NCBI GenBank assembly: GCA_022763365.1
Contig: JALEGN010000003.1
Coordinates: forward strand, 1 to 32,210
Source: Minisyncoccota bacterium
GTDB taxonomy: Bacteria > Patescibacteriota > Minisyncoccia > Phycocordibacterales > UBA1006
Direction of reading: 5' to 3'
DNA: 32,210 nt
The notes under the pieces are model-generated. The model had not been told where the DNA came from. It saw only the letters and a list, made by a program, of their open reading frames with translations, and did no database searches. Within the stretch, counting starts at the first letter, position 1; each line of letters starts with the position of its first letter. The position numbers were made by a program, and so were the translations under genes. Positions 20,197-23,246 of this stretch are shown one piece after another.

Positions 20197-20682
20197 ATGA
20201 GTTTTAAAATATTTGGTAGGAGAAATAACTATACTATTGACTCAATGCACAAAAATTCATCTGGTTTTTTTGCTATGGAGAAATTTTTTGTTACGAGAAA
20301 AAATTTACTTATTGCTTCAGATATCCCTGTTTTTAATACAGAAGAGGAGGTCTACGAATATTACGGTGATATGACTATGGTAGCTAAAGTAAGTTGTAAT
20401 GAGAAAGGGGAGTATTATTTTGATTTCATGCATATTTTTGATCAATCTGTTCCACTTTCTGACGATATTTATGATTCTCTTGCTGTGCATGATGGTTTTA
20501 TTAGATTGTCTAATAGTCATTTTGTTGTTGAGGAAGTGGAAGATAATGAACTTGACGATGAGGCCTATGAATTAGTAACACGAGAAAATCTTGTAAAAAA
20601 AATGGAAGAAGCTGTAGCTAACGAAAATTACGAAGAGGCTGCAAAGCTAAAAAAACAAATCAACAATCTTTTTAAATTATAG
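20197..20682 (+). CDS. Acidic protein with C-terminal UVR-like motif (paralogue A)
   Basis: Tail LVKKMEEAVANENYEEAAKLKKQINNL resembles the UVR motif; AATACT 7 nt before the ATG. Confidence 0.65.
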   Translation: MSFKIFGRRNNYTIDSMHKNSSGFFAMEKFFVTRKNLLIASDIPVFNTEEEVYEYYGDMTMVAKVSCNEKGEYYFDFMHIFDQSVPLSDDIYDSLAVHDGFIRLSNSHFVVEEVEDNELDDEAYELVTRENLVKKMEEAVANENYEEAAKLKKQINNLFKL

Positions 20683-20684
20683 TT

Positions 20685-21209
20685 ATGCCAGTACATGGAA
20701 AAATTTTTAGAGTTAATCCAAACGCTACGGTTGGTGGGATGCCAGTTGGCAGCTGCGGTTACGTTTTTGCAAAAGAATTCCAATTAAGTCATAACAGACT
20801 TCTGGTTCCTCTTGATGCTGATGTATTTTTTACAATAGAAGATGCGCAAGACTGTTTTGATTATGAGATGAGTATAGGATATGTTGCCTTGTATCGAATA
20901 GACGAAGATCATGATGATGAATCATATATTATTGATTTTAATGATAATGATTCGTTTGAAAGCTATCCTCTTTTGGTTGATAAGGATGAGGATCTAGACT
21001 CTTCTGATTGCTTAATTTTTCATATTGACGAATCATTTTTCTCTTATGAAGAAGTTGATGGAGTTGAAAATTATTTAGAGGTTGTTGAAAAAAAGAAATC
21101 CTTAAAAGAACTTCTTTCTGAGGCTGTGAAAAATGAAGATTATGAAAAGGCAGCCCTGATTAGGAACCAAATACAAAAATCTAAACAGAAACAAACAAAA
21201 GGAAAATAA
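20685..21209 (+). CDS. Acidic protein with C-terminal UVR-like motif (paralogue B)
   Basis: Tail LKELLSEAVKNEDYEKAALIRNQIQK; shares central pattern NRLLVPLDADVFFTIEDA with KNLLIASDIPVFNTEEEV of paralogue A. Confidence 0.65.
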   Translation: MPVHGKIFRVNPNATVGGMPVGSCGYVFAKEFQLSHNRLLVPLDADVFFTIEDAQDCFDYEMSIGYVALYRIDEDHDDESYIIDFNDNDSFESYPLLVDKDEDLDSSDCLIFHIDESFFSYEEVDGVENYLEVVEKKKSLKELLSEAVKNEDYEKAALIRNQIQKSKQKQTKGK

Positions 21210-21222
21210 CCTTTTGTTTTTT
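21193..21222 (+). terminator. Intrinsic terminator overlapping 3' end of paralogue B
   Basis: AAACAAAAGG-AAAATAA-CCTTTTGTTTTTT; 5' arm encodes part of TKGK. Confidence 0.8.
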
Positions 21223-21228
21223 ATTTTC

Positions 21229-21256
21229 TTCACATGAAATAAAATTTTGTTACAAT
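21229..21256 (+). promoter_or_regulatory. -35/-10 promoter for T-box leader
   Basis: TTCACA, 16-nt spacer, TACAAT; predicted start near 21263. Confidence 0.55.
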
Positions 21257-21262
21257 ATTATT

Positions 21263-21430
21263 ACCTACGAAGCGCTGACAACGTGGAGGTTACAAACCCA
21301 GAGCCTCTCTGGAATAAAAAAGAGCTCTCTTTTTAGATACAAGAGGGAAGTAGGGTGGCACCGCGGTTTATATACATAATCGTCCCTGTGTATTAATAAT
21401 TTATTGTTAATACACAGAGGCGATTATTTT
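21263..21430 (+). promoter_or_regulatory. T-box leader (transcription-attenuation type, probably Asp) with very short candidate Stem I
   Basis: T-box AGGGTGGCACCGCGG at 21352-21366 with downstream CGTCCCT, followed by terminator AATCG...CTGTGTATTAA/TTAATACACAG...CGATTATTTTT (21378-21430). Only about 90 nt precede the T-box; a GAC lies in the loop of a short 5' hairpin (21263-21290). Confidence 0.88.
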
Positions 21431-21444
21431 TAATTTAAAAACTT

Positions 21445-21786
21445 ATGAAAAATTTACGAACACAAAAACTATTTACCGTTGCGTACCCCTTAACTGCATT
21501 AATTTTAGGTTTTGTTTTAGGATATGCCACAATTTTCTTCAAACCATATGTTGCAGGAATCGCTGAACTTACGAACACTGGGGTTAATTTAGAAATTGCT
21601 CTGAATGCAATCATTCATATTTCTTTAATCACATGTAGCATCTCATTTATCATAACAGTTATTAAAGATACCGTACTAGACACATCAATTAATTTTACAT
21701 TATTTGGACTGGCTTACTTGGGAAGTCTTGCGTACTTTACTATGGCTATTTATGAAGTTGTTACTAAAATTTCTCAAATCATATAA
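21445..21786 (+). CDS. Small membrane protein of unknown function, first gene under the T-box
   Basis: 113 aa with three predicted TM segments between the T-box terminator and aspS (2-nt gap). Confidence 0.75.
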   Translation: MKNLRTQKLFTVAYPLTALILGFVLGYATIFFKPYVAGIAELTNTGVNLEIALNAIIHISLITCSISFIITVIKDTVLDTSINFTLFGLAYLGSLAYFTMAIYEVVTKISQII

Positions 21787-21788
21787 TT

Positions 21789-23246
21789 ATGAAACGAACA
21801 TATATTAAAGACCTCCATAACCACAGTGGAGAAGAAATTACTATTAAAGGATGGGTTGACGTTGCTCGTGATCAAGGGAAAATGGCTTTCTTTGATTTCC
21901 GTGATGTAACCGGAAAAGTTCAAGGGGTTGTTTTTGGAAAACCTGAAGTCCTTGAGGTAGCAAAAAATCTGCGTCCAGAATGGGTTGTTGCCGTTCATGG
22001 AATTGTTAATGACCGTAATGATAAAAATGCTAAAGAATTTAAAACTATAGTTGAAGAAACGGGTGTCCGCGACTTCTTTATTAAAGATGTCGAAATAGAA
22101 ATAACTGGTTTTGAAATCCTTAACAAGGCAGAAACACCAGTTTTCGATATTACTGAATCAACAGTTGAAACAAATGAAGAAGTTCGTCTAAAAAATCGCT
22201 ATCTTGACCTGCGAACAGCTCGGATGCAAGAAAACATGAAAATGCGTCATGCAGTAGCAAAATTATGTAGGGATTACCTTGACGAAAATGGATTCTTAGA
22301 ATTAGAAACACCAATTCTGACAAAATCTACTCCTGAAGGAGCACGAGATTATGTGGTTCCGTCTCGGCTTTCTCCGCAGCATTTCTACGCACTACCTCAA
22401 TCACCACAACAATACAAACAATTATTGATGAGTTCTGGTATGGAACGATATTTCCAGTTTGCACGCTGTATGCGTGACGAGGATTTACGTGGTGACCGTC
22501 AACCAGAATTTACTCAATTAGACCTTGAAATGTCATTTGCTAGTGAAGAAGATATCATGCAAATGAACGAAGAATTGCTAATTAAAATTGTATCGGAACT
22601 CTATCCTGAAAAGCGAATCCAACAGATTCCATTTCCACGTATCCCATATGCTGAAGCTATGGAAAAATATGGAAATGACAGACCAGATATTCGGGAAGAC
22701 AAAGATGATCCAAATCTTTTGGCATTTTGCTGGATTGTTGATTTCCCATTCTTTGAAAAAACAGCAGATTCAGACGACCCTCAGGCAACAGGTGAATGGA
22801 CCTTTACCCATAACCCATTTTCTCTTTCAAAATCTGAGCATGTAGAAAATCTCAAAAACAAAGAAAATATTGGAGATATTATAGCCGCTCAATACGATAT
22901 TTGTTTAAATGGATATGAAATTGGAGGTGGATCAGTCAGAGCCCATGATCCAGAAGTCCTCAAGTCAATCCTTTCAATCCTTGGGCACAGTGATGAAAAG
23001 ATTGAAGAAAACTTCGGACATATGTTGAAGGCTCTTGGTTCAGGAACACCACCGCATGGTGGAATAGCTTGGGGATTTGATCGATTAATGATGATTCTTC
23101 AAAACGAAAAAACTATCCGTGAAGTTATTGCCTTTCCAAAAAATGGACTTGGACGTGATCCAATGATGGAGGCACCGTCAACCATTTCAGAAGATCAATT
23201 AAATGAACTTTCGCTAGAACTGAAAGAAATTAAAAAACCTGAATAA
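21789..23246 (+). CDS. aspS: Aspartyl-tRNA synthetase, bacterial type but lacking the GAD insertion
   Basis: VRLKNRYLDLRTARMQENMKMRH, YALPQSPQQYKQLLM, RYFQFARCMRDEDLRGDRQPEFTQLDLEMSF, GIAWGFDRLMMIL; KYGNDRPDIRED joins almost directly to LLAFCWIVDFPFFE. Confidence 0.95.
   Translation: MKRTYIKDLHNHSGEEITIKGWVDVARDQGKMAFFDFRDVTGKVQGVVFGKPEVLEVAKNLRPEWVVAVHGIVNDRNDKNAKEFKTIVEETGVRDFFIKDVEIEITGFEILNKAETPVFDITESTVETNEEVRLKNRYLDLRTARMQENMKMRHAVAKLCRDYLDENGFLELETPILTKSTPEGARDYVVPSRLSPQHFYALPQSPQQYKQLLMSSGMERYFQFARCMRDEDLRGDRQPEFTQLDLEMSFASEEDIMQMNEELLIKIVSELYPEKRIQQIPFPRIPYAEAMEKYGNDRPDIREDKDDPNLLAFCWIVDFPFFEKTADSDDPQATGEWTFTHNPFSLSKSEHVENLKNKENIGDIIAAQYDICLNGYEIGGGSVRAHDPEVLKSILSILGHSDEKIEENFGHMLKALGSGTPPHGGIAWGFDRLMMILQNEKTIREVIAFPKNGLGRDPMMEAPSTISEDQLNELSLELKEIKKPE

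What the first reader, a model, noticed from the sequence alone, without database searches (positions are those of the whole stretch)
21263..21430. T-box riboswitch with a very short Stem I in a Patescibacteria-like genome
The diagnostic AGGGTGGCACCGCGG...CGTCCCT antiterminator and an overlapping strong terminator are present. From the predicted start (~21263) only ~90 nt precede the T-box. The 5' part folds as ACCT...GCG-CTGACAA-CGT...AGGT, a ~28-nt hairpin with GAC (an Asp codon, followed by A) in the loop. Canonical transcriptional T-boxes have a long Stem I with distal elbow-binding modules. Ultrashort Stem I forms are best known from actinobacterial ileS leaders, which act on translation. 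A transcription-attenuating, Asp-specific, minimal form in CPR would be unusual.
Basis: partly seen in the sequence, partly recalled or inferred. Interest (0 to 1): 0.82.

Follow-up and report, generated by a model that had tools for sequence, protein, structure and literature searches.

The report
Stripped-down tRNA-sensing switch before aspS
In a tiny-genome Patescibacteria species, the gene for the enzyme that loads aspartate onto tRNA is preceded by a real but drastically shortened T-box RNA switch that lacks both tRNA-gripping modules described so far and still appears to work by stopping transcription; the same stripped-down design recurs across the phylum and is missed by the standard RNA-family model.

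Summary
Window 21263-21431 is a T-box leader of an operon encoding a 113-aa membrane-like protein and aspartyl-tRNA synthetase. It has a promoter ending 6 nt before Stem I, a ~28-nt Stem I, Stem III, the antiterminator, and a -27 kcal/mol terminator that shares the antiterminator's 3' arm. Rfam's T-box model scores it 42.8 bits (cut-off 93). Stem I is a kink-turn hairpin with GAC in a 7-nt apical loop. There is no apical tRNA-elbow module (IDTM) and no Stem II S-turn or pseudoknot.

About 90 related leaders precede aspS, serS, thrS, glyS and ileS across Patescibacteria. Stem I covaries, and the loop codon matches the downstream synthetase. Promoters sit directly against Stem I (39 of 54; background 8%), and 82 of 88 leaders carry a terminator. 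About half the aspS leaders, and every serS leader with a resolved Stem I, lack Stem II.

Published schemes hold that tRNA binding is reinforced by an IDTM, an S-turn or both, and that short-Stem-I T-boxes mostly act on translation and need Stem II. These leaders have neither module and look transcriptional. I read them as a new variant (a 'fifth class') of a known kind. tRNA binding and antitermination are inferred, not shown.

The parts
21229..21256 (+). Promoter TTCACA-N16-TACAAT with TG before the -10; start of transcription ~21263
   Evidence: Consensus scan 10/12; -10 at the same 6-10 nt from Stem I in most of 54 related leaders
21263..21290 (+). Ultrashort Stem I: C-stem ACC/GGU (21263-21265 with 21288-21290), kink-turn (bulge UAC 21266-21268; GA 21269-21270; GA 21286-21287), 3-bp upper stem GCG/CGU (21272-21274 with 21282-21284)
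   Evidence: Sequence; covariation in two gap-free alignments of relatives
21275..21281 (+). 7-nt apical loop CU-GAC-AA; specifier codon GAC (Asp) at 21277-21279
   Evidence: Codon at fixed loop register matches the downstream synthetase in relatives
21298..21312 (+). Small spacer hairpin CCAGAG-CCU-CUCUGG (no S-turn); comparable hairpins in only some relatives
   Evidence: Sequence; linker comparison
21320..21349 (+). Stem III: AAGAG + CUCUCUU...AAGAGGG (7 bp) + AA, matching the known RRRNG-Stem III-AA motif
   Evidence: Sequence; RF00230 alignment; motif as in PMC7778990
21352..21387 (+). Antiterminator: AGGG/CCCU helix, UGGC bulge (21356-21359) for the tRNA 3' end, upper helix GCGG/AUCGU side
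   Evidence: RF00230 alignment; compensatory helix changes AGGG/CCCU, GAGG/CCUC, AUGG/CCAU in relatives
21376..21431 (+). Intrinsic terminator (hairpin 21376-21427, then UUUUU), mutually exclusive with the antiterminator
   Evidence: -27 kcal/mol, z -10.9; such a terminator in 82 of 88 related leaders
21445..21786 (+). First gene of the operon: 113-aa hydrophobic protein, no Pfam/NCBIfam match
   Evidence: similar ORF before aspS in same-genus relative L023
21789..23246 (+). aspS, aspartate--tRNA ligase (485 aa)
   Evidence: PF00152 E 1.4e-112; NF001750 587 bits vs cut-off 443

Best explanation
This is a minimal T-box riboswitch controlling aspS by transcription attenuation. As RNA polymerase leaves the promoter, a 28-nt kink-turn hairpin forms at the very 5' end and presents GAC in a 7-nt loop (CU-GAC-AA). 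The anticodon loop of tRNA-Asp (GUC) pairs with it, probably as a loop-loop contact. If the bound tRNA is uncharged, its GCCA 3' end pairs with the UGGC bulge and stabilises the antiterminator, so aspS is transcribed. If the tRNA is charged, or none is bound, the 3' arm is captured by the -27 kcal/mol terminator and transcription stops. Shown here: architecture, covariation, codon-gene match, promoter position, terminator, and lack of the IDTM and Stem II modules. Inferred: tRNA binding, direction of the switch, and the loop-loop geometry.
For: Own T-box: RF00230 E 1.7e-8. Covariation of Stem I: 94.1% of cells paired, 44 double-changed cells against 12.0 in shuffles (0/500 reach it), covariation score 0.62 against at most 0.15 for any slid version; second set 95.8% paired, score 0.42. 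Antiterminator compensatory changes. Codon-blind hairpin search: 38 of 54 aspS leaders against 1.9% of shuffles; 33 carry an Asp/Asn codon against 0.2%. The UGGN base that pairs with the tRNA 3' end follows the gene: nearly all aspS and all serS leaders UGGC, thrS UGGA, ileS UGGU, glyS UGGA, and in the own genome tRNA-Ser ends in G73, tRNA-Thr in U73, tRNA-Ile in A73. Terminator in 82 of 88 leaders against 19% with shuffled tails; a Shine-Dalgarno-like motif near the first ATG in only 3 of 88. Promoter abuts Stem I in 39 of 54.
Against: No binding or transcription assay exists. The Stem I hairpin is thermodynamically weak by itself. Literature says transcriptional T-boxes generally need the elbow-binding module (PMC7583486) and that short Stem I T-boxes need Stem II (PMC10482949), so affinity is unexplained. 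The tRNA-Asp gene of this genome was not found, so anticodon and discriminator were not checked for Asp itself. The hairpins in the covariation sets were chosen partly for pairing, which inflates the percentage paired (the compensatory changes less so).
Confidence: 0.87

Rival explanations
1. Translational T-box: the 3' hairpin hides the ribosome binding site instead of ending transcription, as in the actinobacterial ileS leaders that share the short Stem I.
For: Short-Stem-I T-boxes described so far mostly act on translation (PMC7583486, PMC10482949).
Against: The 3' hairpin is followed by a U-tract in the window and in 82 of 88 relatives; a Shine-Dalgarno-like motif near the first ATG in only 3 of 88. 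In the window the hairpin ends 17 nt before an ATG without such a motif.
Confidence: 0.07
2. Decayed T-box: the leader descends from a full T-box, has lost function, and only the antiterminator/terminator remnant persists as a constitutive attenuator.
For: Reduced genome; Stem I energy is weak; the two known affinity modules are absent.
Against: Stem I keeps compensatory changes, the loop codon keeps matching the gene or switches between the enzyme's two tRNA substrates, and the UGGN base follows the tRNA discriminator. Decay would erase these.
Confidence: 0.04
3. The leader has a hidden longer Stem I or a diverged Stem II (the 21298-21312 hairpin) doing the classical job.
For: A 6-bp hairpin does sit between Stem I and Stem III; similar ones occur in L013, L015, L016 and L023.
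Against: An upstream terminator and adjacent promoter leave no room 5'. The hairpin has no S-turn and no IIA/B partner, is absent from L009, L010, L011 and from the serS leaders, and some leaders have only 24-26 nt between Stem I and the T-box.
Confidence: 0.05

Closest known systems
Class III T-boxes (Nocardia farcinica / Mycobacterium ileS; 'ultrashort' Stem I)
   Same: Short Stem I built on a kink-turn with the specifier in an apical loop, no elbow-binding IDTM (PMC10482949, PMC10651847).
   Different: [quoted passage not shown] Here: transcription terminator, 7-nt loop, no Stem II, specificities Asp/Asn, Ser, Thr, Gly.
Class II T-boxes (B. subtilis glyQS)
   Same: Transcriptional; no Stem II, a linker instead (PMC10482949).
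   Different: [quoted passage not shown] here there is no IDTM and Stem I is ~28 nt.
Class I T-boxes (B. subtilis tyrS), Rfam RF00230
   Same: UGGN bulge, antiterminator/terminator switch, Stem III motif, upstream of synthetase genes.
   Different: Long Stem I with IDTM and Stem II are missing; scores far under Rfam's cut-off (0 of 20 relatives reach it).
Patescibacterial aspS/ileS T-boxes that keep Stem II (e.g. L052, L151, L111)
   Same: Same kink-turn Stem I, same antiterminator and terminator.
   Different: They carry the GAA...AGUAGA S-turn strands and a IIA/B-like CCGGGU..GCCCG element; a class III aptamer joined to a transcription terminator, a likely intermediate.

Membership tests
T-box riboswitch (general) | UGGN bulge in an antiterminator of two helices | tested here: met
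   compensatory helix changes in relatives
T-box riboswitch (general) | Specifier codon matching the regulated gene | tested here: met
   GAC before aspS; codon-gene agreement in relatives
T-box riboswitch (general) | UGGN base complementary to the tRNA discriminator | tested here: inconclusive
   Met for Ser, Thr and Ile of the same genome; tRNA-Asp itself not found in the assembly
T-box riboswitch (general) | Mutually exclusive terminator or sequestrator | tested here: met
T-box riboswitch (general) | Stem III with RRRNG...AA | tested here: met
   21320-21349
T-box riboswitch (general) | Binds uncharged cognate tRNA | not testable with these tools
   needs experiment
Rfam RF00230 | Score at or above the gathering cut-off (93 bits) | tested here: not met
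   42.8 bits; 0 of 20 relatives
Class I/II T-box | Long Stem I with distal IDTM | tested here: not met
   Stem I is 28 nt and the promoter abuts it
Class III T-box | Short Stem I with kink-turn, specifier in apical loop | tested here: met
   loop is 7 nt, not the 5-6 nt described
Class III T-box | Stem II with S-turn and IIA/B pseudoknot | tested here: not met
   Absent in the window; absent in 23 of 46 aspS and 4 of 4 serS leaders compared (after hand correction of L011 and L100)
Class III T-box | Acts on translation (mostly) | tested here: not met
   Terminator with U-tract; sequence evidence only

The most novel reading that the evidence does not exclude
Patescibacteria use a fifth class of T-box with neither the elbow-binding IDTM nor Stem II. 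It recognises tRNA only through a kink-turn hairpin whose 7-nt loop (consensus Y-U-codon-A-M) mimics a tRNA anticodon loop, so that recognition is an anticodon-loop/anticodon-loop kissing contact. That contact alone would be fast and tight enough for transcription control, reaching the extreme in leaders of 84-104 nt that also lack a clear Stem III.
Probability: 0.4. Interest if true: 0.88.

Novelty: new variant of a known kind. Interest (0 to 1): 0.76.

Why it matters
Current understanding is that T-boxes need at least one of two affinity modules (IDTM or Stem II S-turn), and that transcriptional ones generally need the IDTM for speed (PMC7583486, PMC10482949). A phylum-wide set of transcriptional leaders with neither asks directly what the minimum for tRNA sensing is, and supplies natural 84-130-nt constructs to test it. 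It also adds a tRNA-responsive regulator to Patescibacteria that the standard Rfam model misses, and shows specifier switching (GAC/AAC) on an enzyme that probably charges two tRNAs.

Tried and rejected
- Rfam scan at gathering cut-off: nothing but a tRNA-Ala in the window and nothing in 20 relatives; useless for this form.
- Energy folding of Stem I: no better than shuffles, prefers CUACG/CGUGG; rejected because that helix is not conserved.
- tRNA-Asp of the own genome: two pattern searches and Infernal at E up to 10 failed. No tRNA-Met turned up either, so the assembly probably lacks a tRNA cluster.
- The same-family pattern hits L008, L017, L018/L025, L020, L026 and L028 lack a usable antiterminator 3' arm or sit inside genes; discarded.
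- Automatic Stem I calls for L007, L070, L183, L194, L201 and L228 were wrong or doubtful and were left out of counts.
- The S-turn flag for L011 is a chance AGTAGA inside a long Stem III; L100 has a variant Stem II. Corrected by hand.
- T-box literature searches with Patescibacteria or Candidate Phyla Radiation found no paper, and a looser search listed none either. Only open-access PMC is held, so absence there is not proof.

Full report
WHAT IS THERE. Window 21229-21431 holds, in order: a promoter (TTCACA-16-TACAAT with TG before the -10), a short hairpin, a spacer, Stem III, the T-box antiterminator, and an intrinsic terminator. An independent terminator of the preceding gene ends at 21219. 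Downstream are a 113-aa hydrophobic ORF without family match and aspS, called aspartate--tRNA ligase by NF001750 at 587 bits (cut-off 443). Rfam at its curated threshold sees only a tRNA-Ala in the window. Forced, RF00230 matches at 42.8 bits, E 1.7e-8, but stretches its Stem I over the promoter.

STEM I. Reading by eye and then by comparison, the 5' hairpin is not a plain stem. It is ACC-UAC-GA-A-GCG-[CUGACAA]-CGU-G-GA-GGU: a 3-bp lower stem, a 3-nt bulge, the paired GA/GA of a kink-turn, a 3-bp upper stem and a 7-nt loop with GAC. A kink-turn at the base of Stem I is a known T-box feature (PMC10651847). Energy folding does not favour it (-3.7 kcal/mol, z +0.6) and offers CUACG/CGUGG instead. 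In relatives the kink-turn hairpin covaries (95.8% paired, covariation score 0.42, 0/500 shuffles reach it), while the alternative does not hold (63% paired).

RELATIVES. Best AspRS relatives with names are Ca. Campbellbacteria/Pacebacteria/Nomurabacteria MAGs, so the host is Patescibacteria. Pattern and covariance-model searches and regional fetches gave 104 leaders in which the T-box and its 3' arm are complementary. They precede aspS (55), thrS (15), glyS (8), serS (5) and ileS (5), besides trp-type leaders. The window's own genome has three: aspS (77.8 bits), serS (83 bits, E 4e-15) and thrS (32.9 bits). The model was built from relatives that include the first two.

IS STEM I MORE THAN CHANCE? 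A search for the kink-turn hairpin blind to the codon finds it in 38 of 54 aspS leaders and 5 of 5 serS leaders, against about 2% of dinucleotide shuffles. In 33 aspS leaders the fixed loop register reads an Asp or Asn codon, against 0.2% of shuffles. In a gap-free set of 29 leaders, three of the four upper-stem pairs change on both sides (for instance CG 12, GC 11, AU 3, GU 2, UA 1), with 44 double-changed cells over the structure against 12.0 expected. Caveat: these hairpins were selected with a pairing criterion, so the percentage paired is inflated; the compensatory changes are less affected. The thrS leaders mostly use a plain hairpin GG-CUACCAA-CC with ACC. Some glyS leaders use plain hairpins with GGC, others the kink-turn form.

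RIGHT tRNA? The UGGN base follows the gene: C for nearly all aspS and all serS leaders, A for thrS and glyS, U for ileS. In the own genome tRNA-Ser(GCU) ends in G73, tRNA-Thr(UGU) in U73, tRNA-Ile(GAU) in A73, as required. tRNA-Asp could not be found in the assembly, so that check is open for Asp.

NO LONG STEM I, NO STEM II. In 39 of 54 leaders a -10 box lies 3-18 nt (mostly 6-10) before Stem I, against 7.8% for control windows, so Stem I is at the very 5' end of the RNA. Linkers between Stem I and the T-box fall into two kinds. Half of the aspS leaders (23 of 46 after hand correction), all three ileS leaders compared and none of the four serS leaders carry GGGAAGAA...AGUAGAACCC plus a CCGGGU..GCCCG element, i.e. 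Stem II with S-turn and IIA/B. The other half, including the window and all its family's aspS leaders that could be resolved, have 24-65 nt (one 128) without it. Five leaders (L004, L005, L006, L053, L097) have only 24-26 nt and no clear Stem III; L097 runs from Stem I to the end of the antiterminator in 84 nt.

TRANSCRIPTION OR TRANSLATION? A hairpin that uses the antiterminator's 3' arm and is followed by a U-rich tract is present in 82 of 88 synthetase leaders, against 19% when the tail is shuffled. A Shine-Dalgarno-like motif near the first ATG occurs in 3 of 88. The window's terminator is -27 kcal/mol, z -10.9. Transcription attenuation is therefore the best reading, by sequence only.

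HOW IT PROBABLY WORKS. The loop consensus is Y-U-codon-A-M (-2 pyrimidine 47/54, -1 U 43/54, +1 A 50/54, +2 A or C 54/54). That is the consensus of a tRNA anticodon loop (Y32-U33-NNN-R37-N38; own knowledge). I infer a loop-loop contact in which U and A beside the codon could also pair with A37 and U33 of the tRNA. Uncharged tRNA then bridges to UGGC and holds the antiterminator. The kink-turn probably aims the hairpin. None of this is shown biochemically.

SPECIFIER SWITCHING. Among aspS leaders 34 have GAC, 1 GAU and 11 AAC. None of 35 genomes checked has an AsnRS above the cut-off, and 34 of 35 have GatB. So AspRS probably makes Asp-tRNA-Asn too, and either substrate tRNA can serve as the signal.

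KNOWN OR NEW? PMC10482949 sorts T-boxes into four classes and states that codon pairing is augmented by the IDTM, by the Stem II S-turn, or by both; short-Stem-I class III needs Stem II and is mostly translational, with a 5-6-nt loop. [quoted passage not shown] TBDB (PMC7778990) searched short forms only in Actinobacteria and among truncated hits of the long model. The window's leader has neither module and a terminator. It is a T-box by its core features but belongs to none of the four classes: a new variant of a known kind. No held paper joins T-boxes with Patescibacteria, and a looser search listed none, with the limit that only open-access papers were searched.

Noticed in passing
L016, L041, L093, L095, L098, L100-L102, L150, L165, L177, L184: aspS leaders with an AAC (Asn) specifier instead of GAC; none of 35 genomes checked has a clear AsnRS and 34 have GatB, so AspRS is probably non-discriminating and either tRNA can be the signal.
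   Followed up: partly
L096, L109, L158, L163, L179, L180, L189, L192, L197, L208, L210, L212, L219, L224, L229: A second T-box form in the class: UGG (Trp) on the 3' side of an internal loop (GGxCCC...GGG-UUGGG-CC), with S-turn-like and CCUCCGUAA elements, before trpE and other genes of unclear function.
   Followed up: partly
L004, L005, L006, L053, L097: Leaders with only 24-26 nt between Stem I and the T-box and no clear Stem III, 84-104 nt in all; possibly the smallest T-boxes.
   Followed up: partly
window 21789-23246: AspRS is 485 aa and matches the bacterial 586-590-position AspRS models in two stretches, so part of the usual insert domain seems to be missing.
   Followed up: no
G000 (own genome): 29 tRNAs found but no tRNA-Asp or tRNA-Met, although the assembly is rated 99% complete; either an assembly gap or unusual genes.
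   Followed up: partly
window 20197-21209: Two adjacent ORFs (161 and 174 aa) each ending in a UVR (UvrB/UvrC) motif, apparently tandem paralogues, just upstream of the T-box.
   Followed up: no
window 21445-21786: 113-aa hydrophobic ORF between the T-box and aspS; a similar ORF precedes aspS in L023, while L010 and L011 have other small ORFs there.
   Followed up: no
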